A model generated the notes under the pieces. That model saw only the letters and a program-made list of their open reading frames with translations, ran no database searches and had not been told where the DNA came from. The position numbers were made by a program, and so were the translations under genes. A stretch of 64,000 nt of DNA from Beroe forskalii. Lineage: Eukaryota; Ctenophora; Nuda; Beroida; Beroidae. The first letter of the stretch is position 1, and every line of letters begins with the position of its first letter. This document shows positions 17,525-57,259 of this stretch, one piece after another. The stretch spans positions 372,001 through 436,000 of the forward strand of contig WFMF01000084.1 in NCBI GenBank assembly GCA_011033025.1, in the 5' to 3' direction.

Positions 17525-20500
17525 CTGAAGAAATAATATTGGATTTGAAAATCATGTCAAGAAAAAGGCTTTAGAAAATAATTATTCAGCAGGGAAATAG
17601 AAGTATATTCGAACAGTCAGCAGCCCGAGCTTTGTGGCCTCAAACGAGGCTGACCTTGTATCCAAGTGGCAAGTGTAGCTTCTTCGGGCAGAGCAAACCC
17701 GCAGTTCTTATGCTTCGAGATGAAGAGAATCGACCCCTCGTAGTTGTAACCTGCGATGAATTTAGGAGATGATTCAAAAAGTAAATCAAACAGGAGATCA
17801 CAAAAGTTTCTAGGAGTTTTGAAAATTTTGAATCCCATCAAGGTCAAAATTCATTCTGTACTGTGTTTGTTTTGCTCGATACATCACATGTGAATTTTGT
17901 TCGATCTGACAGGTCAACATCACAGCAACTTGAATTAATTTATGCCATAACAATTGAAGAGTCGAGTTAATGTTCAATCAGAAATCCAGAGCCATCCGTA
18001 TATTTGTCAGCCCCTACCCCACCACAAGTTAAGCACAGCTGAGTGACCTATGAGTTGGGAGAGGAGTGTGTGTTTGAAGTCTGGGGAGGATATCTGAACG
18101 AACTGCACGAAGGGGAAGTAGTTTACCACTGCTGCCAGCTCGTCGTCCAGGATACTGTCGAACAGGACTATCTGAGCCAGGTCCTTGTAGACGAGCAGCA
18201 ACTCGGCTTCTGGAGGGGGAACAAGTTTAAACCGGCTAGGGGGTTAAAATGAGAGAAAGAAATTCTGGAGCTAGCAATAGGGAGGTGAAAAATAGTTAAA
18301 ACCGGTTGGGGTGGTTAGTATGAGTCTATAGCATTATTGGAGCTAGCAATAGGGTGGGAAAAGTTAAAACCGGTTAGGGTGGTTGAAATGAGTCTACAGC
18401 AATTACTGGAGCTAGCAATAGGGAGGGAAAAGTTAAAACCGGTTAGGGTAGTTGATATAAGTCTATAGCAATTACTGGAGCTAGCAATAGGTAGGGAAAA
18501 GTTAAACCAAGTCAGGGCGGTTGAAATGAGTCAACAGCAATTACTGGAGCTGCTGCAATGCGGCGAAAGAGAATATTCGCATATGTGTGTACATGGATCG
18601 ATAGAAAATCCATAGAAAGAATGCGCAAATTACAGTGCGCGCAATGCTGTAAATGTAATTTGCTTTTCATACATATTGGTAACATTATTTGGAAATTGAA
18701 GTTGGGAAAATGAGTATGCAAAACTAACTTTTCATTAATTCATTAGATGAAGTCTGGAGAGTGTCCCACTAACCGGATATAACCGAGGGAGTAGAGAGTG
18801 TCCCACTAACCGGATATAACCGGGGGAGTAGAGAGTGTCCCACTAACCGGATATAACCGGGGGAGTAGAGAGTTTCTCACTAACCGGATATAACCGAGGG
18901 AGTAGAGAGTTTCCTGACAATGCCCAGCATCTCAGTGAGGTTGGTGTTCCTGGTGACAGTGAAGCGCTTGTTGACCATGACAGGGTCCCCAGGCACGTGT
19001 ACCACCACCACTTCCTCCTCCTTGAGGGTATTAGGTCGCAGTAAGTAGCACCGCACAGCTCCGTACACCTCGTCACATGCCAGGTGGAAGGTGTCCTCCA
19101 GCTCCCGGTGCCGCCCAGTGCTAATTAGCACTGCAGCCTTCGTCTCACCGTCTGAGGGGGCGTGACTCTCGTGAAGTGTAACTTATATCGGCTATTGTAT
19201 GACAGGCTCTCAAGGACAGAATACACCTTAAAAGATTCAACACTTTTCCAGAGGGGTACTAAATTGCCGCCAGTTAAGCTGATTTCAATTTGGGTCCAAA
19301 GAGAAATGAAGTATTTGGCAATGGCTTGTGTGATGTATGTGATTCCTCTATTATATAACTGAGTTGATAGTCTTGATAAAAGTCCATTTTAGGAATATCA
19401 AGTGAAAAAAATAATCGAGGAAAATACTAAATTTTATTTTTGCCACAATTTTATTGTCCCACAACTAGGAATTTGTTAGATTATATCGTAATTCTGGTGA
19501 CCACTGATGGTCAAATACTAGGAGTATAATAAGTCTATTACATACCTTTGAGGAGGAGGTCTATCTGGATTCTATGAGACACGGTAACCACCGAGTGCTG
19601 GGTGAGCTCCCGGAAGGTGTTCATAGCTCCAGTCTCCAGAGGCCCTGAGTAGTGCAGCTTGCGACCCTCCCTGGGAGAAGAGAAGTCAGCAGGGTCGTGA
19701 GAGTGGCTATTAACATGGGTAGTGGACTCACCAGTGCAGAGAGGATGGAAATCAAACATGCCCAGCATGGGGTAGTGAATTGAGGATGAGATTAGAATCC
19801 AAGACATTTGTGTCGTGTTCGAAGAAATTAATGCAGATGGGGATTGTTCTTGTGTACCATTTCAGTGTGTATCATTTCAGATACTGACCTGACGAAGTAG
19901 ACTATGGGGTAGAGCTTGATGTCCAATTCTTGACAGATGAGATTCCAGTTGAAACACTCAATGATCTTCACTCCGGTAATGTTAGTTTGTAGGAGCTGCT
20001 TTATCGTAAAGAGACTAGACACATCCGCTGCAATGTACCATTCGGATATAGAGATGGGTGAGTGGTTAATATCTAATAATAAGAAGCAAACTAGACACAT
20101 CTGAAAATTAAATAGTTGCAACTAACATCCGAAAACTAAACACAGTTGCGACTAACATCTGAAAACGAAGAGGATAAAATGCCCTTGCTTATCTGCTACC
20201 GCCTTCAGGTAACCCTCGCTGTCAAGCAGTTGTATTGAGTTGCTCTCACTCCTCAGAATAGGATCATTCTCTGAGAACAGACTTTCCTGCGGGCAATTGA
20301 GGAGGGTTTTGTGAGAAAGCGGGTGTGTGGGGATGGGTGGGTAAGGGGATGACTGGGTGAGGGACGGGCGGCTGAAGGGACAGTTGTGTGAGAGGAATGC
20401 ACGTTTAGATCATTGAAATGATTCAAGATTTTAGAGTGAAAATGACATGGAAGTGAGCCAAACACTCGAATGCACCTCACCCTGATGTCCCTGAGCTCTA

Positions 20501-35262: not shown

Positions 35263-37234
35263 AGCCTAGGTTTGCAGATCTTTTAAACCCCTTGGTTAAG
35301 CTTGAATGTAATTTTCCCTCTCTTTTTCCTCCTTCCCAGAAATGTACGGAAGAAGTGACGCAGTGTCTACTAAACTGAATCTACCTGCCCCGCCAGAGAC
35401 GCAAGGATTGGGTGAGGTGTCCACTGTGTTCGGGGAACAGCACCTCGACCAAGGCCACAGAGGTACGGAGGACATTGTTTTGTTAAGGGCCAAGTAAATG
35501 TCTTTAGCCTGACGTCATCATCACGTTTTCAAGTGGTCATTTGGTTGTTTCGTGTGCTGAACGATAAGTTTAGCAAAATATCCCTACAGATCGCTCGGTC
35601 TATTACAGTACCTCCCCCAGGAAACCTCAATAATCGCTGGTTCTTTGATCCGCCTCGTGACATTCTAGAGCTCAGGGACATCAGGGTGAGGTGCATTCGA
35701 GTGTCTTGCTCACTTCCATGTTATTTTCACTCTAGAATTTTGAATCATTTCAATCCTCTAAACGTACATTCCCCTCACACAACTGTCCCTTAAATACCCC
35801 TCACCCACTCGTCCCCTCACCCACCCATCCCCCACACACCCACTTTCTCTCTCACAATTGCCCGCAGGAAAGTCTGTTCTCAGAGAATGATCCTATTCTG
35901 AGGAGTGAGAGCAACTCAATACAACTGCTTGACAGCGAGGGTTACCTGAAGGCGGTAGCAGATAAGCAAGGGCATTTTATCCTCTTCGTTTTCAGATGTT
36001 AGTCGCAACTGTGTTTAGTTTTCAGATGTTAGTTGCAACTGAATTTAATTTTCAGATGTGTCTAGTTTGCTTCTTAGTAACCACTCACCCCCTCACTATA
36101 TACGAATGTTACATTGCAGCGGATGTGTCTAGTCTCTTTACGATAAAGCAGCTCCTACAAACTAACATTACCGGAGTGAAGATCATCGAGTGTTTCAACT
36201 GGAATCTCATCTGCCAAGAATTGGACATCAAGCTCTACCCCATAGTCTACTTCGTCAGGTTAGTATCTGAAGTGACACTCAATGAAATGGTACACTAGAA
36301 CAATCTCCATCTCCATTAATTTCTTCGAACCCCCTGAGATTAACACGACACAAATGTATTGGATTCTAATCTCGTCCTCAATTCACTACCCCATGTTGGG
36401 CATGTTTGATAGCCATCCTCTCTGCACAAGTGAGTCCACTAACCATGTTAATAGCCACTCTCACGACCCTAATGACTTCTCTCCTCCCAGGGAGGGTCGC
36501 AAGCTTCACTACTCAGGGCCTCTGGAGACTGGAGCAATGAACACCTTCCGGGAGCTCACCCAGCACTCGGTGGTTACCGTGTCTCATAGAATCCAGATAG
36601 ACCTCCTCCTCAAAGGTATGAGATATACCTATACTCCTAGTATTGACCATCAGTGGTCACCAGAATTACGATATAATCTAACAAACTCCTTGTTGTGGCA
36701 AAATAAAATTGTGGCAAATATAGAATTTAGTATTTTCCTCGATTATTTTTTCACTTAATTCCTAAAATGGACTTTTATCAAGACTATCAACTCAATTTAT
36801 AATAGAGGACTCACATGTCACACATGCCATTGCCAAATACTTCATTTCTCATTGAACCCAAATTTAAATCAGCTTAACTGGCAGTACTTTAATACCCCTC
36901 TGGACAAGAGTTGTATTCTGTCCTTGAGAGCCTGCTAAACAATAGCCGATATAAGTTACACCTCACGAGAGTCACGCCCCCTCAGACGGTGAGACGAAGG
37001 CTGCAGTGCTGATCAGCACTGGGCGGCACCGGGAGCTGGAGGACACCTTCCACCTGGCGTGTGACGAGGTGTACGGGGCAGTGCGGTGCTACCTGCTCCG
37101 ACCTAACACCCTCAAGGAGGAGGAAGTGGTGGTGGTTCACGTCCCCGGGGACCCTGTCATGGTCAACAAGCGCTTCACGGTCACCAGGAACACCAACCTC
37201 ACTGAGATGCTGGGCATTGTTAGGAAACTCTCTA

Positions 37235-37640
37235 CTCCCTCGGTTATATCCGGTTAGTGGGAACTCTCTACTCCCTCGGTTATATCCGGTTAGTGGGACA
37301 CTCTCTACTCCCTCGGTTATATCCGGTTAGTGGGAGACTCTCTACTCCCTCGGTTATATCCGGTTAGTGGGACACTCTCTACTCCCTCGGTTATATCCGG
37401 TTAGTGGGACACTCTCTACTCCCTCGGTTATATCCGGTTAGTGGGAGACTCTCTACTCCTCGGTTATATCCGGTTAGTGGGACACTCTCTCCCTCGGTTA
37501 TATCCAGTTAGTGGGACACTCTCTACTCCCTCGGTTATATCCGGTTAGTGGGACACTCTCTTCTCCCTCGGTTATATCCAGTTAGTGGGACACTCTCTAC
37601 ACCCTCCGTTATATCCGGTTAGTGGGACACTCTCCAGAAT
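37235..37640. repeat. 37-bp minisatellite with repeated splice donor, about ten units
   Basis: Unit TACTCCCTCGGTTATATCCG followed by GTTAGTGGGACACTCTC. The first unit is the end of the coding exon 36986-37252. Copy 1 has four units (18,760-18,910). Most units are identical, so the array is young or homogenised. Confidence 0.9.
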
Positions 37641-37654
37641 TCATCTAATGAATA

Positions 37655-40046
37655 GGGGGGGGGGGTAAGGCAAACTTTGGCAAACTTTGGCAAGCCTTTT
37701 TTTTGAAGTTTGCCAAAAAAGTGTTTAAAGTTTGCCATAAGGTTTAAAGTTGCCAAAATTTGCCAAAAGTTTGCCAAAAATACCCCAAAAATTTTGTAAT
37801 TTCTGATTTCTTGTCCACAGTGCATACAGGACGTGTGCATAATAGTTTTCAAAGGAGCTGAATCGATATCCAATGCTTAATTTTCATCCAGACCTTCCCG
37901 TTCGAGGCTTTACGCCTGGACCTTCCCTCTCCAAGCACCATACTGTTTACAAAAAGGTATCCTAAGGCTGAAGGACCAGGGTTAGAGATTTCGAGAACCT
38001 TTTCGTTCGAGAAAAGAGATGTTTATAATTCCCAAGCATGGGTAATGTATCTACTATCTACTTATCTTTAACCAGTTCATCAGATAACATGTCTACAAAA
38101 TGGTACCACGGAACACTGACCAAAATGAGCCTGCATTAGCATCCATGGGGCCGGAGGCTGAGTGTTAGGTAATTTCAAAAATTTGCCCTCCATTGAGGCT
38201 AATGGTTTACCAATAGTCTAATTTTCGAAAAAAGCCTCCCACTGTTGAGGTTAATTAGCGCCCAATAGCTTCCATTAACCTCCTCAGCCTCTGGAGGCTA
38301 ACATATTGATTTAGCCTCCACTGAAGAATAAGCCTCCATTAGCCTCCACGGAAACTGAAATATAACATTTTCGTGGAGGCCAAAGCTTAAATATGGAGCC
38401 TAATGGAGGCTAGTGGAGGCTTTTCGGATGCTCACTTATTAATCAATAAGCTGAAACTGGTAAAATGTGCACTAATTTAGTAATTTGAAAAACAATTTAT
38501 AGATTCAAACTTTCAGATAGCTCCAACTATCCTCCACTGGGCACCACTCAGCCACCACTAGGCACCACACAGCCACCACCAGCCTCCACCAGGCTCCAAC
38601 CAGCCTCTACTAGGCTCCACTCGGCTGAGTGGCTCCACTCAACTTCCACTAGGCTCCACTCAGCCTCCACTAGGCACCACCCAGCCCCACTAGGCTCCAC
38701 TCCCACCTCGACTATGATTCACACAGCCTCTTTTCCTCACTAGGCTCAAGACAGCCTCCACTATGCTCCACACAGTCTCCACCGCAGGCTCCACACATGC
38801 CACCAGGCTCACCCAGCCTCCACTGAAACAGTTCAGCCTCCGCTAGAGCTTACACAGCCACCATTAGGATTCACACAGTCTCCACTTCTATAAAGTTAAT
38901 AGTAGGTGGGCCCATGAAAGTGAATGGGGCCTAGTGGAGGCTGAGGGAAACCTAGTGGACTGATAGTCTCTACAAAGCTTCCAATAAACTACACAGCCTC
39001 CACTTGGCCCCAACCAGCCTCCACTAGGCTCCAGTCAGCCCCCACTAGGCACCACAGTCCACACAGCCTCTACCAGGCTCCACTTGGCCCCAACCAGCCT
39101 CCACTAGGCTCCACGCAGCCTCCATTCAGGCTCCAATCAGCTTCTACTAGGCTCCACTCAACCTCCACACAGCTTCCACTAGTAGTGAAGGCTGGGTGGA
39201 GCCTACTGTAGAGTGGTCAGAGGCTGAATGGAGCTTAGTGTAGCCTACTGGCTCTGCAAAGCCTCCACTATGCTCCAGACAGCCTCCATTAGACCCTACA
39301 CAGCCTCCACTCAACCTCCACTGGGCTCCGAGCAGCCTCCACTACCAGTGAAGGCTGAGTGGAGTCTAGTGTAGACTTGTAGAGTGAGTGGAGCCTAGTC
39401 GAGGATGAGTGGAAGCTGAGTTGAGCCTAGTGGACCACTAGGCTCCAGACAACTTCTACTAGGCTCTACAAAGCCTCAACTAGGCTCCAATCACTCTCCA
39501 CTAGGCTCCGCTCAGCCTCCACTATGCTACACACAGCCTCCATTTGGCTCCACTCAACCTTCACCAGGCAATTAGAATTCTCAACATGTCGGGTTATGTT
39601 GCAGGAATACATGGAAACTGGCCGATGGTCACGGTGGGGCCCTTACTGTGATTTTATGCTGCAGTATCAGACTTATGTAGCGTGCATGCTTCGGTTTTAG
39701 GGCTCCATACAACAGTTTGATCGGACTACTTAGTACTTAAATGCATAAAACTTAAAGTAAAGTAATGAAATATCGTATTTGTTACTGTAGCCTTCTACTC
39801 TATTCAATGTGGATTTAGTCTCTGTTACAGCTTCTGGATAACGTCAAAATGTGAAACAGACCTTAGGAATCGATTCAGCATCTTTAAAAAGCATATTATG
39901 GGTACCGAAAGTGTTGCCAAAGTGGCTAAAAAGGTGTTTTAATTTTGGCAAACTTTGGCAAACACAACAAATGCTTCCACTTTTTGGGTTTGCCAAAAGT
40001 GTTTATAAAGTTTGCCAAAAGTTTGCCAAATTTCTACCCCCCTCCC
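37655..40046. mobile_element. Foldback-type element A, flanked by TGAATA target duplication
   Basis: 2,392 bp. The left end is a G run, TAAGG, then CAAACTTTGGCAAACTTTGG repeats (to about 37,780). The right end is the inverse (about 39,940-40,046) closing with CTACCCCCCTCCC. TGAATA stands on both sides (37,649-37,654 and 40,047-40,052). The same intron in copy 1 (near 18,735-18,745) has ATGAATTAATG and no insertion, so this is a filled/empty site pair. Between the ends lie about 350 bp of unique sequence on each side and a strand-switching 21-bp satellite (about 38,150-39,575). I see no transposase. Confidence 0.85.
38390..39575. repeat. 21-bp satellite GGAGGCTGAGTGGAGCCTAG with strand switches
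   Basis: Units are GGAGGCTGAGTGGAGCCTAG plus T, or its complement. Long blocks in complement orientation (CCACTAGGCTCCACTCAGCC) are interrupted by plus-orientation blocks near 38,930-38,955, 39,185-39,245 and 39,355-39,430. The unit is itself partly palindromic (AGGCT..AGCCT). Confidence 0.9.
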
Positions 40047-40244
40047 TGAATAACCCAAGTTAGTTTCAGATACTCATTTCCCTAAGTAAATTGGCTTCCA
40101 TTTCCAGATAAACGTTTGACAAAATGTATGAAAAACAAATTACATTTACAGCATTACGCGCACTGTAATTTGCGTATTCTTTCTATGGATTTTTGTATCG
40201 ATCCAAATACAAACTTATGCGTGTATTCTCTTTCGCTGCATTAC

Positions 40245-46985: not shown

Positions 46986-48365
46986 AGGATCTATGTGTAG
47001 GCGCGCGGCCGCGGCGCTTACCCTGAGGAAGCGCGCCGCGCGCAGCGCAAACAGGGATATACGTGTTTACCAATTTGCAATTATCCGATCACATATTGGT
47101 TATCGATGATAGACCTTTCCGAGGCACGAGGGATGCGCTAAATATTGCTAAACACGTATATCCCTGTTTGCGTTGCGCCGCGCCGTAGGGAAGCGCGCTG
47201 CGCATCTGATCAGTCTTCCGAAGCCCGCATAGGTGTGTGTACGCGCCGCGCGCTTCCCTGGAGAAGCGCGCCGCGTGAGCCCTAGCCACGGCCACACAGG
47301 GATATACGTGTTTAGCAAGATCAGTCAGCCGCTACGCGGCTGCATCCGCGGTTTTGATATTTATATCATGATCATCAGTTGCTAAACACGTATATCCCTG
47401 TCTGCGTTACGCTGCGCGCTTCCTCAGAACAGGGAAGCACCGCGCGCGTACACACACCTATGCGGGCTTGGGAAGATCATCAGACAAACCAGATGCAAAC
47501 GTTAACACTTAACTTCCTAACCCCGCATAGGTGTGTGTACGCGCGCCGCGCAACGCAGACAGGGATATACGTGTTTAGCAAACACTTAACAACATCGAGC
47601 TTCCTCAGCCCGCATAGGTGTGTGACGTGTGCATGTGTTCGCGCAACGCAAACAGGGATTAACGTGTTTAGCAAAACATCGAGGGACCTTTCCCATTGAG
47701 TTCCTCTGGCTGGATGCTGGATAGGCCGATAAGTCCGCATTTCCCCTAACCAGTGGCGTCGCTTGCCGCGCCTTCCTAAGCCCGCATAGGTGTGCGTACG
47801 CGCGCCGCGCTTCCCTGGGGAAGCGCGCCGCGCAACGCAGACAGGGATATACGTGTTTAGCAATGCCGCGCCGTGCACTCCGCATGGGCAATGGGCGTAA
47901 CTTGAATTGCGACGCCCCTGGTTAGGGGAAGCAGCGCACGTAACCAGGTCCTGTACCCGCATAGATGTGTGTACGCGACACGCTTCCTAAACACCAAGCC
48001 CGCAAAGGTTTGTGTACGCGCCGCGCGTTTTCCTACGGGAAGCGCGCCGTGCAGGGTAGGTCTCCCATATAAACGGGAGCCTTCATTATCTATGACAATG
48101 ACGTCACTCAGAAAAATATAATTAAGCGCACCAAGTGCTTTAACTTTAAGGACTAGGGTTAGGGTCAACATTTGTTAGGGTTAGGATTAAGGTTAGGGTT
48201 TTGGTTAGGGTTATGGTTAGGTTTAGGATACAGAAAAATTGACATTTAGATCTGTGACGTCACTCAGAGCCGTTTATATGGGAGAGATACCCCGTGCAGC
48301 GCTAACAGTAACACTAAACAGTGAACAGGGATATACGTGTTTAGCAAGCGCCGCGAACAGGATAA
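46986..48365. repeat. GC-rich cluster of two alternating repeat words
   Basis: ACAGGGATATACGTGTTTAGC occurs in plus orientation at about 47,051, 47,297, 47,561, 47,840 and 48,325, with a variant at 47,651, and inverted at about 47,143 and 47,379. AAGCCCGCATAGGTGTGTG or variants occur at about 47,220, 47,520, 47,605, 47,777, 47,953 and 47,996, and inverted at about 47,440-47,470. They are joined by GCGCGCCGCGC-type stretches with local hairpins. Open frames across it are by-products of the repeats. Confidence 0.9.
48156..48232 (+). repeat. Degenerate interstitial telomere-like TTAGGG repeats
   Basis: About eight to ten TTAGGG words with variants (TTAGGATTAAGG, TTATGG, TTTAGG). TTAGGG is the common metazoan telomere unit. 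The tract is short and degraded, so it is not an active telomere. Confidence 0.8.
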
Positions 48366-48510: not shown

Positions 48511-49178
48511 AGAGAGTAGAGCCAGCATACGGTAATTACACATGCCAGAGTCACGCAAATGCACTAAGAAATATCACCCGGATTTGTTCTAGGAAAATCA
48601 CTCAATTAGTATTAATTTTAATTAAATCAATACAATATGAATTGTGAATCAAGATCTTTGAAGGAAGTTTGAAACATTTTAAAATCAAAAAGTAAACAAT
48701 AAACATAAAAAATCAGTTAAAATTATATTTTCAATATCAAAATTTAAATCTACCGCAAGCGGGTCACAATCACATCTTGACAAATTCCCAACAAAACTTT
48801 AATCTAAAATATTAAAGATGTACAATGTACTTACTATTTTTTACACACTTGCCTCATAGCTGATATGTACAATATACCTACGCAATAAACCCGAAAAACT
48901 AATATCAATATTATTGATCAACCACCACTTTCAAGTGCGACTTTGTCTGGATTTCTAACCCCCTTCGCGCGTGCGAAGCTTCAGCTAGAATAAGAAACGC
49001 CTCGCGCTTAAAAAATGAGCCTGACAACTTCGATTTAACAAATAATTAAATTGAGATATGAGGAAATAATGGAGTGTAGGTTGAAACATTTGTTTAGTAA
49101 CACTATCTTAATTTGCGGCCCAAATAATTTTATTTTGTAGATCCTTCGTGCTTCCGTTCCAAGACATAATGAGTTTCA
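48511..49178. other. No gene recognised
   Basis: AT-rich spacer before element B. Nothing supported. Confidence 0.5.
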
Positions 49179-51701
49179 GGGGAGGGGGTAAGGCAAACTT
49201 TGGCAAACTTTGGCAAACACTTTTTTTGGCAAACTCCAAAAAAAGTGGAAGCATTTGCCAAAGTTTGCCAAAATTAAAACACCTTTTTAGCCACTTTGGC
49301 AACACTTTAGGTACCCATAATATGCTTTTTAAAGATGCTGAATCGATTCCTAAGGTCTGTTTCACATTTTGACGTTATCCAGAAGCTGTAACAGAGACTA
49401 AATCCACATTGAATAGAGTAGAAGGCTACAGTAACAAATACGATATTTCATTACCTCTTACTTTAAGTTTTATGCATTTAAGTACTAAGTAGTCCGATCA
49501 AACTGTTGTATGGAGCCCTAAAACCGAAGCATGCACGCTACATAAGTCTGATACTGCAGCATAAAATCAATAGTAAGGCCCCACCGTGACCATCGGCCAG
49601 TTTCCATGTATTCCTGCAACATAACCCGACATGTTGAGAATTCTAATTGCCTGGTGAAGGTTGAGTGGAGCCAAATGGAGGCTGTGTGTAGCATAGTGGA
49701 GGCTGTGTGTAGCATAGTGGAGCCTATTGGAGGCTCTGAGGAGCCTAGTGAAGGCTGCGCAGAGCCTAGTGAAGGCTGAGCGGAGCCTAGTGGAGAGTGA
49801 TTGGAGCCTAGTGGAGCCTAGTAGAAGCTGCGTGGAGCCTAGTGGTCCACAAGGCTCAACTCAGCCTCCACTGATCCTCCACTAGGCTCCACTCATTCTA
49901 CACTAGACTCCACTCAGCCTTCACTGGTAGTGGAGGCTGCTCGGAGCCCAGTGGAGGTTGAGTGGAGGCTGTGTAGGGTCTAATGGAGGCTGTCTGGAGC
50001 ATAGTGGAGGCTCTGAGGATCCTAGTGAAGGCTGAGTGGATCCCAGTGGGGGCTTTGTAGAGCCTAGTAGAAGCTGTGTGGAGCCTAGTGAAGGCTGAGC
50101 GGAGCCTAGTGAAGGCTGAGCGGAGACTAGTGAAGGCTGAGCGGAGCCTAGAGGAGAGTGATTGGAGCCTAGTTGAGGCTTTGTAGAGCCTAGTAGAAGT
50201 TGTGTGGAGCCTAGTGGTCCACTAGGCTCAACTCAGCCTCCACTAGGCTCCACTCACTCTACACTAGACTCCACTCAGCCTTCACTGGTAGTGGAGGCCG
50301 CTCGGAGCCCAGTGGAGGTTGAGTGGAGGCTGTGTAGGGTCTAATGGAGGCTGTCTGGAGCATAGTGGAGGCTCTGCAGAGCCAGTAGGCTACACTAAGC
50401 TCCATTCAGCCTCCGACCACTCTACAGTAGGCTCCACCCAGCCTTCACTACTAGTGGAAGCTGTGTGGAGGTTGAGTGGAGCCTAGTAGAAGCTGATTGG
50501 AGCCTGAATGGAGGCTGCGTGGAGCCTAGTGGAGGCTGGTTGGGGCCAAGTGGAGCCTGGTAGAGGCTGTGTGGACTGTGGTGCCTAGTGGGGGCTGACT
50601 GGAGCCTAGTGGAGGCTGGTTGGGGCCAAGTGGAGGCTGTGTGAAGCCTATTGGAAGCTTTGTAGAGACTAATGGTCCACTAGGCTCCACTCAGCCTCCA
50701 CTAGGCTCCATTCACTCTCTACTAGGCTCCACTCAGCCTTATTAACTTTATAGAAGTGGAGACTGTGTGAATCCCAATGGTGGCTGTGTGAAGCCTAGCG
50801 GAGGCTGAACTGGTGCCTAGTGGAGGCTGGGTGGAGCCTGGTGGTGGCTGTGTGGAGCCTGGTGGAGACTGTGTGGAGCATAGTGGAGGCTGTCTTGAGC
50901 CTAGTGGAGTAGTGGAGGCTGTGTGAATCATAGTCGAGGTGGAGTGGAGCCTAGTGGGGGCTGGGTGGTGCCTAGTGGAGGCTGAGTGGAGCCTAGTGGA
51001 AGCTGAGTGGAGCCACTCAGCCGAGTGGAGCCTAGTAGAGGCTGGTTGGAGCCTGGTGGAGGCTGGTGGTGGCTGTGTGGTGCCTAGTGGTGGCTGAGTG
51101 GTGCCCAGTGGAGGATAGTTGGAGCTATCTGAAAGTTTGAATCTATAAATTGTTTTTCAAATTACTAAATTAGTGCACATTTTACCAGTTTCAGCTTATT
51201 GATTAAGGCTCCAATGAGCATCCGAAAAGCCTCCACTAGCCTCCATTAGGCTCCATATTTAAGCTTTGGCCTCCACGAAAATGTTATATTTCAGTTTCCG
51301 TGGAGGCTAATGGAGGCTTATTCTTCAGTGGAGGCTAAATCAATATGTTAGCCTCCATAGAGGTTGAGTGGAGGTTAATGGAAGCTATTGGGCGCTAATT
51401 AACCTCAACAGTGGAGGCTTTTTTCGAAAATTAGACTATTGCAACCATTAGCCTCAATGGAGGCAAATTTTTGAAATTACCTAACACTCAGCCTCCGGCC
51501 CCATGGATGCTAATGCAGGCTCATTTTGGTCATGTTCCTGTGGTACCATTTTGCAGTAGAAATGTTATCTGATGAACTGGTTAAAGATAAGTAGATAGTA
51601 GATACATTACCCATGCTTGGGAATTATAAACATCTCTTTTCTCGAACGAAAAGGTTCTCGAAATCTCTAACCCTGGTCCTTCAGCCTTAGGATACCTTTT
51701 T
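49179..51701. mobile_element. Foldback element B (inverted relative to A), right end lost
   Basis: Starts GGGGAGGGGGTAAGGCAAAC and continues through TTTGGCAAAC repeats and the unique segment with GACGTTATCCAGAAGC (inverse of 39,835-39,850 in A). Then comes the 21-bp satellite (about 49,655-51,125) and the second unique segment (TTATCTGATGAACTGGTTA). It stops at GGATACCTTTTT, where A would continue into its other terminal repeat. Confidence 0.85.
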
Positions 51702-51930
51702 GGGGAGGGGGTAAGGCAAACTTTGGCAAACTATGGCAAACACTTTTTTTGGCAAACTCCAAAAAAAGTGGAAGCATTTGCCAAAGTTTGCCAAAGTTTG
51801 CCAAAAATAAAACACCTTTTTAGCCACTTTGGCAACACTTTAGGTACCCATAATATGCTTTTCAAAGATGCTAAATCGATTCCGAAGGTCTGTTTCACAT
51901 TTTGACGTTGTCCTGAAGCTGTAGCAGAGA
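51702..51930. mobile_element. Terminal fragment of the foldback element (D)
   Basis: A second GGGGAGGGGGTAAGGCAAAC end with its first 200 bp, in the same orientation as the start of B. It ends at ACAGCTTCTG-like sequence exactly where the LINE ORF1 stop lies. Confidence 0.8.
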
Positions 51931-52824
51931 CTACATCCTCTGATCAATATCAGAGACGTTCTCCTCTGACTCTTCAGTAGTTCTGTAGCGCTGCAGGTGC
52001 TCTCTGCTGCAGATCTCCCCGTTCTTCAAGTAGTGGTACTGCTGAGGTTCCGTCCGTACCTTCTCCTTCAGCGCTGCCACAAGCTTCCTCCTCTCCTCGC
52101 GCTCAGCTGGAGTCCTGTCAGGACTGATGAAGACCTTGCTGAATCTCTCAGAGTTCTTTTAGCTTACTTGAATTCGGAGGACTGAGTGAGCTGATGTCCG
52201 ATCAGTGAAACAAACTCGGACGGGTCTGCTGATGTCAGGTCTTTTCCTCCCAATTCGACTGCATGAAGTACCAGACCTGCTGGTGTCATGTGAGGGAGCA
52301 ATCTCTTCCAACAGTTTCCCAACACTCTCGTGAAGCACGTTCTCCCCAACTTCTTCTGGCATCCCAAACATAACAACGCACCTTTCACGCTCCTCGCTCT
52401 TGACTACTGTCTTGACTGCATATTTTAGTTTCTGCATTGTGATACTGTCTGATCGTGTTCCTTTCTTCACCGCATCACTGTAGCTCTTAATTTCTGATTT
52501 AGCGGTCTCGGTGACAGCCTTGACAGTTTCTCCACTGTTCACTTCTTGCAACTCCATGATCCTTTTCTGGTTAACAATCTGTTCTGCTTGAAGATTGTTA
52601 ATTGAGCACGCTGCTGACTTCAAAACTATTTGTACTCCTCTCCATCATACTGATCAGCTCACAAACAACTTTCACCATAGCATATGCATCTTTTCGGCAT
52701 GTTTCATTAGTGAACCACTCAAATCTGACTTTGCTCTGCAGCCACCAAGACCCATAACAGCACTCACAACAGATTCAATTTCCTGCTTCATTTCATACAG
52801 GTCACTGATTTTAAAGTCCGCCAT
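51931..52824 (-). pseudogene. Non-LTR retrotransposon (LINE) ORF1, frameshifted
   Basis: Reads from MADFKISDLYEMKQEIESVV at 52,824, through a coiled-coil-like NNLQAEQIVNQKRIMELQ, RERCVVMFGMPEEV, RIGRKRPDISRPVRVCF and VLR, to SKVFISPDRTPAEREERRKL, YHYLKNGEICSRE and a stop at 51,931. The order (coiled coil, RRM-like GMPE..RPVRV block, ISPDLTP-type tail) is that of CR1/L2/Jockey-type ORF1 proteins, which bind the element's RNA. At least three frame changes separate the pieces (near 52,700, 52,610 and 52,160). No reverse transcriptase is found beyond it, where foldback fragment D takes over. Confidence 0.75.
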
Positions 52825-52927
52825 GATTGTATTCTCATGTAAGAATGTAAATGATCGTGTATTTTCTACAACACACTCTTAGAATCAAATCACTGATAAG
52901 CGAGAGCTGCTAATTCAACGCAAACGA

Positions 52928-53010
52928 GAAATGATAAGATTGCAACTGGAGAAATGATAAGATTGCAACTGGAGAAATGATAAGATTGCAACTGATAAGA
53001 TTGCAACCCA
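52928..53010. repeat. 23-bp tandem repeat, about 3.5 units
   Basis: Unit GGAGAAATGATAAGATTGCA plus ACT, nearly identical. Non-coding. Confidence 0.9.
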
Positions 53011-53152
53011 TTTATACTTAGTAAATTGCATCTAAAGACCCAAATACCGATCTTATTTGATGATACAGGTCATTATCGTGTCATATAATGACGTTCAAGA
53101 GAATTTTGAAACTGTATAGTTCAAGTCAAAAAAAAGTTTCCTTTGACCCTAG

Positions 53153-53268
53153 ATTGACTGGCCTTTAATTTTGACCGGCCCACTTTAACCGGCCTTTTTT
53201 AACCGGCCCTTCGGACAAAAATCTCAAAGTCGGTTTTATCCTTTGGTTAAATAAAGGCCAATAAGGTA
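53153..53268. mobile_element. GGCCTTTA-ended MITE
   Basis: Ends GATTGACTGGCCTTTAATTT and TTAAATAAAGGCCAATAAGG face each other; inside are repeated AACCGGCC words. A related piece is at 26,625-26,705. It borders element C and may have replaced its end. Confidence 0.55.
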
Positions 53269-54525
53269 TTTCATTACCTCTTACTTCAAGTTTTATGCAT
53301 TAAAGGACTAAGTAGTCCGATCAAACCGTTGTATGAAGCCCTAAAGCCGAAGCACATCGCTACATAAGTCGGTTACTGTAGCATAAAATCAATAGTAAGG
53401 CCCAAACGACCTTTGGCCAGTTTCAATGAATTCTACAAAATAACCTGACATGTTGAGAATGCACTAATTGCCTAGTGAACTGTGAAGGCTGAGTGGAGGC
53501 TGTGTGGAGCATAGTGGAGGCTTTGTAGAGCCTAGTAGAAGCTGTGTGGGCCTAGTGGTCAGTAGGCTCCCACTCAGCCAACACAGGCTCCTCAGCCTTC
53601 ACTAGTAGTAAGGCCTGAGTGGAGCCCAGTAGAGGCTGAGTGGAGCCTAGTGGAGCCTAATGGCTCTGCAAAGCCTCCACTAGGCTCCAGACAGTCTGTG
53701 TGGAGGTTGAGTGGAGCCTAGTAGCGGCTGATTGGAGCCTGAGTGGAGGCTGTGTGGAGTCTAGTGGACTGTGGAGGCTGAGTGATGCCTAGTGGAGGCT
53801 AGATGGAGGCAGAGTGGATCCTAGTGGAGGCTGCGTGGAGCTTAGTGGAGGCTGTGTGGAGCCTAGTGGAGGCTGAGTGGTGCCTAGTCGAGGTTGTGTA
53901 GAGCCTAATGGAGGCTGTGTTGAGCCTATTGGAAGCTTTGTAGAGCCTGGTGGTCAACTTGGCTCCACTCAGCCTCCACTAGCCTCCACTCAGCTTCCAC
54001 TAGGCTCCATTCAGTCTCCACAAGGCTCCACTTAGCCTCTACTGGGCTCCATTCAGCCTCCACTAGGCTCCACACAGCCTCCATTAGGCTCCAATCACTC
54101 TCCACTAGGCTCCACTCAGCCTCCACTTAGTAGTATTGGAGGCTGTGTGGAGCTTAGTGGAGGCTGACTGGAGCCTAGTAGAAGCTGAGTGGAGCCTTGT
54201 GGAGACTGAGTGGAGCCTAGTGGAGCCTAGTGGAGGCTAGTGGAGGCTGAGTGGAGGCTGAGTGGAGCCTAGTGGAGACTGAGTGGAGCATAGTCGATGT
54301 TAGTGGAGGCAGGCTGGAGCCTCTTGGAGGCTGTGTGGAGCATAGTGGAGGCGGACTGGAGCCTAGTGGAGGCTGAGTGGAGCCTAGTGGAGGCTGAGTG
54401 GAGCATAGTGGCGGCTGAGTGGAGCCTAGTGGAGGCTGAGTGGAGCCTAGTGGAGGCTGTCTGGAGTCTAGTGGAGGCTGTCTGGAGCCTAGTGGAGGCT
54501 GTCTGGATCCTAGTGGAGGCTGTGC

Positions 54526-55995
54526 GGGGGGGGATCAGGTACTAAGTGCATGACACAGGGTGTGGGTGGGTGGGTCTCGGCCGAGTGTGAAATACAGTTA
54601 GTCATTGTGTACTAAGTTGGGTGGTCCTTGAAGTTTTTTGTACCAAACAGTTAGTACAGTGTACTAAATTGGGTGGTATTCCACAATTTTGTATCCAAAA
54701 TGTTAGTACAGTGTACTAAATTTGATAGCCAAGGACTTTTTTAAATATATTTTACGGTCCTTTACATTTTTCTGACTCAAAAAGTAAAAAGTTGGTTGGT
54801 AAAATTTTATTGATTGAAATCACCCAGTCATTTTGTGACCAGATTTAAACCAATCCATTGTTCTCTCTTGAGTCGGATACTTCATACTAGGCCTTATATT
54901 GTGCTGTAAGGGATATATCACATATTGATTTAGTCGAAAACAATAAAATTTTAGTTTGATTGATTGATTGAAAATTTTAGTTGATTGATCACGGGTACTT
55001 AGCCGAAAATTACTTCGATAGAAATTTCCAGATGTATAGGTAGGTACAACGACCGGCAATGAACGATTCTTAATTTGAGTACATTACAAAAAATAAAGAT
55101 TTAAAAAATTATACAAATATGTTAGATTTTGTCGAGTTTGATTGGCAATCTGCCTATTCAGTATTCACAATAGGGGTAGGGGGCCATCCATAAAGGACGT
55201 CCGCAAAATTTCGGCTATTTCAGACCCTTCCCTCCCCTTGTCCGCAAACGTCCGCAACCTGAAATACCCCCCTGCGGACGTCCGCATTTTCACTGAAAAT
55301 CTTTTGTGTCATTATCTTTATGCCTTTTCTCAAATATGGTGACAAAATCAACTTTATTATTCGACTTAATGTCGAAATTCTAAGTCAAAATTCTAAAAAA
55401 TCGACTATTTTCAAATGAAAAACTACTCAAATTGACCAAAATTTTCATAAATGCAGACGTCTGCATTTGGCCAAATACCTCCCACCCCCTTCGTCCGCAA
55501 ACGTCTGCATTGCCCAGACTCCCCCTCCCCCTCTTTGCGGACATCCTTTATGGATGGCCCCGTACCTACTTGATAATTGATCAAATTGTTTGAAGGCAAT
55601 AAAAATAGCATCATTTAACAATTAACATATTGTGATTAATATTATATACATAATTAAATTAATAATTAGTAATCAAATGAAACTTTAATAACTAATTTTA
55701 AAGTTTTCTATACTTCTTCTTACTCAACTGCATCGAAAATTATGATATTATAGTGTTTTCTATTCAGTACCTATTGCACTTCTGAATTACCTATAGGTAA
55801 GTTTGACTCGTAGTTCCCACAAGGTACCAATTTAAACTTTTAATTAATGTAATTAAGGGGTGGTCCTCGATTTTTAGCTCAAAAAAGAGTTAGTATAATG
55901 TACCAAGTGTAGGGGTGGGTGGTCACGTTTCAAAATTTTCAGAAAAGTTCAGTTAGTACACCCTGTGTCATGCACTTAGTACCTGATCCCCCCCC
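54526..55995. mobile_element. 1.47-kb transposon with long terminal inverted repeats, nested in the satellite
   Basis: Left end: eight Gs, ATCAGGTACTAAGTGCATG, then ACACAGGGTGT. The right end is the exact inverse. Subterminal zones repeat GTTAGTACAGTGTACTAA and GGGTGGT. No transposase frame is seen, so it is non-autonomous. Flanks GGCTGTGC and GGGCTGTG share GGCTGTG, but the satellite makes a target duplication unprovable. Confidence 0.85.
55179..55561. mobile_element. MITE with GGGGCCATCCATAAAGG ends, nested third level
   Basis: Left GGGGGCCATCCATAAAGGAC with GTCCGCAAA; right TTTGCGGACATCC then TTTATGGATGGCCCC. Internally CGTCCGCAAACGTC recurs. About 383 bp, non-coding. It lies inside the 1.47-kb transposon. 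Confidence 0.8.
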
Positions 55996-57259
55996 GGGCT
56001 GTGTGGAGCATAGTGTAGGCGGAGTGGAGCCTAGTGGAGGCTGAGTGAAACCTAGTGGAGGCTTAGTGAAGCCTAGTGGAAGCTGAGTAGAGCCTAGTGG
56101 AGGCTGAGTGGAGCCTAGTGGAGGCTGGCTGGCGCCTAGTGGTGGCTGAGTGGTGCCTAGTGGAGGATAGTTGGAGCTGTCTCAGTCTGAAAGTTTGAAT
56201 CTATAAATTGTTTTTCAAACTACTATATAGTAAATTAGTGCACATTTTTACCAGTTTCCGCTAATTGATTTAGGCTCCAGTCAGCATCCGAATAGTCTCC
56301 ACTAGCCTCCATTAGGCTCCATAAAGTCCATATTAAAGCTTTAGCCTCCACGAAAATGTTATGTTTCAGTTTCCGTGAAGGGCTAATGGAGGCTGATTCT
56401 TCAGTGGAAGTTAAACCGAAATTTTTAGCCTCCATAGAGGTTGAGTGGAGGCAAATTTTTGAAATTAACCTACATTCAGCCTCCAGCCCCATGGATGCTA
56501 ATGCAGGCTAATTTTGGTCATTTTCCTGTGGTACCATTTTGCCAAAGACACGTTATCTGATGAACTGGTAAATGATAAGTAGATAGTACATACATGGATC
56601 CATGCCTAGGAATTATAAACATCTCTTTTCTCGAACCAAAAGGTTCTCGAAATTTCTAACCCTGGTCCTTCAGCCTTAGGATACCTTTTGGTAAACAGTA
56701 TGGTGCTTGGAGAGGGAAGGTCAGGTGTAAAAACCTCGAAGGGGAAGGTCTGAATGAAAATTAAGCATTGGATATCGGTTCGGCTCCTTTGAAAACCATT
56801 ATGCACACGTCCTGTATGCACTGTGGACAAGAAATCAGAAATTACAAAATTTTTTGGTATTTTGGCAAACTTTGGCAAATTTTGGCAAACTTTGGCAAAC
56901 TATGGCAAACTTTGGCAAACACTTTTTTTGGCAAACTCCAAAAAAAGTGGAAGCGTTTGCCAAAGTTTGCCAAAGTTTGCCTTACCCCCCCCCCTTTTTG
57001 TAAACAGTATGGTGCTTGGAGAGGGAAGGTCCAGGCGTAAAGCCTCGAACGGGAAGGTCTGGATGAAAATTAAGCATTGGATATCGATTCAGCTCCTTTG
57101 AAAACTATTATGCACGTCCCTGTACTTGGACAATCAAACAAAATTTTTGATTTTTTGGCAAACTATGGCAAACTTTGGCAAACACTTTTTTGGCAAACTT
57201 CAAAAAAGTGGAAGCGTTTGCCAAAAGTTTGCCAAAGTTTGCCCCCCGTTTCACTTCCA

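What the first reader, a model, noticed from the sequence alone, without database searches (positions are those of the whole stretch)
37649..40052. Foldback element insertion with TGAATA duplication and visible empty site
Arm 2 carries a 2,392-bp element between two TGAATA copies; the same intron of arm 1 is uninterrupted. This gives exact ends for an apparently undescribed family: G-rich tip, TAAGG, and GGCAAACTTT repeats as terminal inverted repeats. The insertion postdates the duplication.
Basis: seen in the sequence. Interest (0 to 1): 0.75.

Follow-up and report, generated by a model that had tools for sequence, protein, structure and literature searches.

The report
Hairpin-ended jumping DNA, six-base footprint
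A 2.4-kb non-coding jumping-DNA element sits in one copy of a duplicated region of an animal genome, with a clean six-base footprint and many sister copies, and each of its ends folds back on itself as a hairpin; the enzyme that moves it was not found.

Summary
Window 37655-40046 (2,392 bp) lies between two TGAATA copies; the matching place in the inverted arm is uninterrupted (TGAATT, 5 of 6 bases). It is one copy of a multicopy family: a 24-base end pattern occurs 256 times in the 216-Mb genome, reversed control 0, and 58 of the 100 listed ends form 29 facing pairs 2.8-7.3 kb apart. Of 27 copies with both ends read, 26 show a 6-bp duplication by eye, the 27th 5 of 6. Two more copies lie in the window, one nested in the other. 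The insertion looks younger than the arm duplication (end branch 0.0026 against about 0.04 per arm), with a caveat.

Correction: past the G tip and about 30 bp, the ends are not inverted repeats. Each carries a self-complementary hairpin of about 98 nt, and the two match better in direct orientation in 24 of 24 copies.

Best reading: a non-autonomous DNA transposon moved by a transposase encoded elsewhere, superfamily unknown. MULE, hAT and rve hits did not reveal the partner. None of the seven kinds tested fits every feature. Repbase and Dfam were not searchable.

The parts
37649..37654 (+). target-site duplication, left copy TGAATA
   Evidence: read directly
37655..40046 (-). the element, 2,392 bp; in the family's orientation (interrupted G tip first) it lies on the minus strand
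37655..37775 (+). R-type end: pure G tip (11 G), TAAGG, GGCAAACTTT repeats, hairpin module (degenerate here, fold z = -3.5)
37776..38500 (-). R subterminal block (the first ~880 bp of that end match the family at about 90%)
38500..39570 (.). central 21-bp minisatellite, blocks on alternating strands
39571..39929 (-). L subterminal block (part of ~490 bp that match the family at about 90%)
39930..40046 (-). L-type end: tip CCCCCCTCCC, hairpin module (degenerate here, fold z = -3.3)
40047..40052 (+). target-site duplication, right copy TGAATA
18737..18742 (-). uninterrupted site in arm 1, TGAATT
49179..57247 (+). second copy of the family (outer), TSD GTTTCA at 49173-49178 and 57248-57253; its right end has lost the TAA before the C run
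51702..56993 (+). third copy (inner), nested in the outer copy; TSD CTTTTT at 51696-51701 and 56994-56999 (a C or a G at either edge is ambiguous)

Best explanation
A non-autonomous cut-and-paste (DDE-type) DNA transposon family. Shown: fixed ends, a 6-bp duplication in 26 of 27 copies, many copies, no recognised transposase in the stretches scanned. Inferred: a transposase made by another element binds the tips and the 10-bp GGCAAACTTT repeats of the end hairpins, cuts the element out and joins it to staggered cuts 6 bp apart, preferring targets that end in A beside the interrupted G tip. Inferred: the central 20-22-bp arrays grow and shrink by slippage and unequal exchange and are carried as passengers. 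The element in the window and its nearest relative lie about 9 kb apart with different duplications, which fits a short-range jump.
For: 256 ends, reversed control 0, 29 facing pairs among the 100 listed. 6-bp duplication in 26 of 27 copies by eye, 25 of 27 by script, against 3 of 702 in mismatched flank pairs. Two empty sites. Common plan: tip, hairpin, L block, array, R block, hairpin, tip. Six-frame Pfam scans of the main element gave 0 families. Recent activity: end branches of 0 to 0.010 in six of the 25 rows (winMain, winInner, winOuter, L043, L050, L052; L054 0.0093 makes seven).
Against: No transposase gene was tied to the family. Of the fetched loci only L049, parts of L039, L040, L060, L063 and L069, two ORFs and the main element were scanned with Pfam; the other copies were judged by the ORFs printed. 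The 6-bp duplication with G...C tips fits none of the superfamilies compared. Excision was not seen. 42 of 100 listed ends have no exact partner; 5 of those 42 were fetched, 2 of the 5 had a diverged partner end.
Confidence: 0.75

Rival explanations
1. The end hairpins are read as single-stranded structures by an HUH-type (or unknown) enzyme, as in IS200/IS605, where hairpins at the two ends face the same way; the 6-bp duplication then comes from a staggered target joined by repair.
For: Each end folds alone into a long hairpin with a one-sided 6-nt bulge (L045 left z -10.6, right z -6.1), median -38.4 and -40.0 kcal/mol against -9.6 for control stretches, and the two modules match better in direct than in inverted orientation in 24 of 24 copies.
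Against: Exact 6-bp duplications are not expected of IS200/IS605 (recalled) and Helentron relatives show none (recalled; passages of PMC4067079 seen). The tips are inverted. Ten of the copies printed carry TTTATTT in the left stem with no matching change, so pairing is not strictly kept. The main element's ends fold weakly (z -3.5 and -3.3) though it moved recently by branch length.
Confidence: 0.08
2. The family is moved by an integrase of the rve kind (Polinton, IS3EU or GingerRoot), the known groups with 6-bp duplications.
For: Passages of PMC10045372 give 6-bp TSDs for Polinton, IS3EU and GingerRoot. Polinton-like loci with integrase and ATPase-like ORFs are present (L064-L068; named from recall, no Pfam run on them).
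Against: IS3EU/GingerRoot end TA..TA, at times TG..CA; here G..C. By eye, no listed family end (one search lists only contigs up to C342) lies within 10 kb of the five Polinton-like integrases read. Of 150 rve rows one, C160:418748, lies 6.8 kb inside a family end, in a 1,769-aa frame of LTR-retrotransposon size; it was not fetched. 13 rve_3 rows: none near a listed end.
Confidence: 0.1
3. The element was in both arms and was lost cleanly from arm 1, or arm 2 was patched by gene conversion; the insertion is older than the duplication.
For: The end modules of the main element differ strongly from its sister's (25 mismatches in the first 100 alignment columns) while most of the inside is nearly identical, a patchwork that conversion could make. 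These end variants occur in no other fetched locus.
Against: Arm 1 holds one copy of the target and no trace of tips. End branch 0.0026 against arm divergence 0.08. Main and sister share derived changes inside the R end module (TTTTTTGAAGTTTGCC), so they are true sisters with different duplications.
Confidence: 0.12
4. A retrotransposon with terminal repeats (LTR-like), since the end modules are direct repeats.
For: Direct 98-bp modules and a duplication of 6 bp.
Against: LTRs are copied from one template and start identical (recalled); here L ends read GCATTTGCC and R ends GCGTTTGCC in the F1 copies printed with an intact module, and TTTATTT occurs only at L ends. Tips are inverted and not TG..CA.
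Confidence: 0.03

Closest known systems
Tetris of Drosophila virilis (foldback; PMC4079207, abstract and passages seen)
   Same: non-coding, repeats inside the ends, tandem arrays that vary in number, no autonomous copy found
   Different: Tetris has 8-10 bp duplications and 220-bp repeats; here 6 bp, 10-bp end repeats and 20-22-bp central arrays, and the end modules are direct
Rehavkus / MULE foldback elements (PMC6446971, passages seen)
   Same: a minisatellite inside a transposon with terminal inverted repeats
   Different: 9-bp duplications and a transposase; a MULE with a 9-bp duplication and its own 20-bp array is nested in a copy of this family (L069, L070)
IS3EU / GingerRoot (PMC10045372, abstract and passages seen)
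   Same: 6-bp duplication
   Different: TA..TA termini; here G..C; no such transposase tied to the family
Dada (PMC3706591, passages seen)
   Same: 6-7 bp duplication
   Different: Dada goes into small RNA genes and has no terminal inverted repeats; here the target hexamers differ from copy to copy
DINE-1 / HINE Helentron relatives (PMC4067079, passages seen)
   Same: end blocks, central tandem repeats, palindromes near the ends, no coding
   Different: rolling-circle type without a fixed duplication (recalled); here 6 bp in 26 of 27
IS200/IS605 (recalled, no call)
   Same: end hairpins in the same orientation
   Different: no duplication, bacterial, single-strand transfer

Membership tests
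Foldback-type transposon | ends built of internal repeats and able to fold back | tested here: met
   10-bp repeats; hairpin folds
Foldback-type transposon | long inverted repeats between the two ends | tested here: not met
   inverted only over tip plus about 30 bp; modules direct in 24 of 24
MULE / Rehavkus | 8-11 bp (usually 9) duplication | tested here: not met
   6 bp; the nested MULE-type element in the same genome shows 9 bp
MULE / Rehavkus | MULE transposase within the ends | tested here: inconclusive
   46 MULE hits; by eye one near a listed family end, C658, and it belongs to a nested element; other copies judged from ORFs or not read
P superfamily (Galileo) | 7-8 bp duplication (recalled) | tested here: not met
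   6 bp
P superfamily (Galileo) | P-type transposase in the genome | tested here: inconclusive
   PF12017 gave 0, but the control genomes gave 0 too
IS3EU / GingerRoot | 6-bp duplication | tested here: met
IS3EU / GingerRoot | TA..TA or TG..CA termini | tested here: not met
   G..C termini in the 27 copies read
Polinton/Maverick | 6-bp duplication | tested here: met
Polinton/Maverick | same termini as Polintons of this genome | not tested
Dada | insertion into small RNA genes | tested here: not met
   target hexamers vary between copies; RNA genes themselves were not searched
Helentron / HINE | no fixed target duplication (recalled) | tested here: not met
   6 bp in 26 of 27
hAT | 8-bp duplication (recalled) | tested here: not met
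   6 bp; 23 hAT hits, none near a listed end by eye

The most novel reading that the evidence does not exclude
The ends are recognised as same-facing folded hairpins, so that a eukaryotic element with a fixed 6-bp duplication moves through a structured single-stranded or cruciform intermediate, by a transposase group not yet described; its 20-22-bp central arrays, all close to two turns of the helix, would then be part of the machinery and not passengers.
Probability: 0.07. Interest if true: 0.8.

Novelty: new variant of a known kind. Interest (0 to 1): 0.42.

Why it matters
Exact ends, exact duplications, two empty sites and a nested self-insertion make the family easy to map and to test. Its mix (6-bp duplication, G tips, hairpin end modules facing the same way) fits none of the known groups compared here, so its partner transposase may belong to an undescribed or poorly known superfamily. 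It also shows one set of ends carrying unrelated minisatellites (21-bp in most copies, other 20-21-bp units in L049 and L063), a route by which satellite DNA spreads.

Tried and rejected
Autonomous partner: Pfam MULE (46 hits), hAT (23), rve (150 rows of 200 candidates), rve_3 (13) and P element (0, control also 0) were compared by eye with the listed family ends (100 of 256; 63; 78; 60 tips, 16 of them a tandem array on C238). One MULE hit near an end (C658) proved to be a nested element of about 8.5 kb with 9-bp duplication TTATTTGGC and 1.2-kb inverted repeats. One rve hit (C160) was not followed. No pair of listed ends is longer than 7.3 kb.

ORFs in copies: L042 and L052 hold frames of 335 and 311 aa that look like LINE ORF1 (recalled); Pfam gave 0 families for L042 and a weak UL92 match at the cut-off (21.0 bits, E 3e-4) for L052, which I take as chance. 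L052's frame is shared with the inner window copy, so that insertion was amplified with the element. A weak big-defensin match in L040 (E 0.027, below cut-off) and coiled-coil and ice-binding matches in L049's array are taken as chance.

Other: an LTR reading was dropped because L and R modules carry different fixed letters. The end pattern was not in viral contigs or genome contigs (0 and 0), which hold no animal genomes as such. The organism stayed unnamed. One search timed out; one search stopped with an error after its first part and was redone.

Full report
The thing itself. Between TGAATA copies at 37649-37654 and 40047-40052 lies a 2,392-bp stretch that starts with 11 G and TAAGGCAAACTTTGG and ends with CTACCCCCCTCCC. 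Arm 1, read on the reverse strand, has one TGAATT and no insert. The two arms are 92.4% identical over 4,129 aligned bases with the element left out.

Family. The window is part of an unnamed 216-Mb genome of 1,134 contigs. A DNA search with the 136-bp left end gave 79 matches from 417 candidates of which 40 were scored. The 24-mer GGGGTAAGGCAAACTTTGGCAAAC occurs 124 + 132 times, the reversed control 0 + 0. Among the 100 places listed I count 29 pairs that face each other 2.8-7.3 kb apart and 42 ends without an exact partner. Twenty pairs were fetched whole, two more were read from end loci, seven were not read. Later lists add pairs down to 1.9 kb (C457) and none above 7.3 kb.

Duplications. 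For 27 copies (three in the window, twenty pairs, L059, L062, and the pairs behind L014/L015 and L031/L032) both flanks were read. By eye 26 have a 6-bp duplication and L052 has 5 of 6. The script found exact matches of 6 or more in 25 of 27 (6 in 15, 7 in 7, 8 in 3; it may add ambiguous tip G or C), and in 3 of 702 flank pairs taken from different copies. In family orientation the last target base is A in 16 of 25. Copies L060, L061 and L063 gave no right end and are not counted.

Anatomy. One end has the tip GGGGAGGGGG (or GGGGCGGGGG), the other a pure G run of varying length. Then come TAAGG and 10-bp GGCAAACTTT repeats, a hairpin module, a conserved block of about 490 bp (L) or about 880 bp (R), and a central 21-bp array whose blocks change strand. 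L049 and L063 share the ends but have other blocks and other 20-21-bp arrays; their two main units are reverse complements of each other, so they look like one subfamily in two orientations.

End hairpins. The left end of L045 folds as single-stranded DNA at -42.2 kcal/mol, shuffles -16.5 (z -10.6); the right end z -6.1; the main element's two ends only z -3.5 and -3.3. Over 24 copies the medians are -38.4 (L) and -40.0 (R) against -9.6 for control stretches of the same copies. The left module aligns better to the right module in direct than in inverted orientation in 24 of 24 (median scores 85.5 and 54.5). In the F1 copies printed, L ends read GCATTTGCC and R ends GCGTTTGCC where the module is intact, and TTTATTT occurs at L ends only. 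So the modules are old direct copies that now evolve apart.

Age and neighbours. In a tree of L and R blocks (25 rows, 760 columns) the main element's end branch is 0.0026 and its sister is the outer window copy (99% over 746 columns). The arms differ by 0.08 in all, about 0.04 each. This supports insertion after the duplication, and a jump of about 9 kb. Against a simple story: main and outer differ strongly in the end modules and in patches of the array (137 mismatches in 2,314 aligned bases overall, most in a few patches), and the main element's end variants occur in no other fetched locus. Conversion of the inside, hairpin-linked mutation, or assembly error at hairpins could each cause this; I cannot tell them apart.

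Nested insertions as controls. The inner copy (51702-56993, CTTTTT) lies in the outer copy (49179-57247, GTTTCA), and the main element has the undisturbed site. At C658 a family end is split by an element of about 8.5 kb with 9-bp duplication, 1.2-kb inverted repeats (96% over 1,175 bp), 20-bp and 100-bp arrays and a MULE-like fragment. At 54525-55996 another G-tipped element (CGGGGGGGGATCAGG) has a 7-bp duplication; of 11 copies read by eye 8 are exact, 2 differ at one base, 1 has none. So 6, 7 and 9 bp can be told apart in one genome.

Mechanism. Shown: fixed ends, fixed duplication length, multiplication, recent copies. Inferred: DDE-type strand transfer by a partner in trans. Not shown: the enzyme, excision, or a role for the hairpins.

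Known kinds. Foldback elements such as Tetris (8-10 bp), Rehavkus/MULE (9 bp), P (7-8 bp, recalled), hAT (8 bp, recalled), IS3EU/GingerRoot (6 bp but TA..TA), Dada (6-7 bp but RNA genes and no terminal inverted repeats) and Helentrons (none, recalled) each miss at least one tested feature. Polinton shares the 6 bp; its ends here were not read.

Limits. No Repbase or Dfam; organism unnamed; transposase comparison by eye on capped lists; Pfam scans on part of the copies only.

Noticed in passing
window 54525-55996: Second G-tipped element (tips CGGGGGGGG..CCCCCCCCG, TSD GGCTGTG) inside the inner copy's array; 21 + 21 exact ends in the genome, 15 facing pairs of about 1.45-1.48 kb; 7-bp duplication exact in 8 of 11 copies read.
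   Followed up: partly
L069:169 to L070:2694 (C658): MULE-type element of about 8.5 kb with 1.2-kb inverted repeats, 9-bp duplication TTATTTGGC and 20-bp and 100-bp arrays, nested in a family end.
   Followed up: partly
L064-L068: Polinton-like loci with integrase-like frames of 357-391 aa and ATPase-like and other frames (named from recall).
   Followed up: no
L056, L052, window 51920-53270: A roughly 0.4-kb element with ends CCTTATTGGCC..GGCCAATAAGG in L056; L052 and the inner window copy share a longer insertion there with a 311-aa frame.
   Followed up: partly
window 37649-40052 against 49179-57247: Sister copies nearly identical inside but strongly different in the end modules; unexplained.
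   Followed up: partly
L059 right end: The C run at the right tip is more than 30 bases long, against 6-12 in the other copies.
   Followed up: no
window 48149-48227: Short GTTAGG/TTAGGG telomere-like array inside the contig.
   Followed up: no
window 37223-37634 and 18757-18914: 37-bp tandem array next to the insertion site in both arms, 11.3 and 4.3 copies.
   Followed up: no
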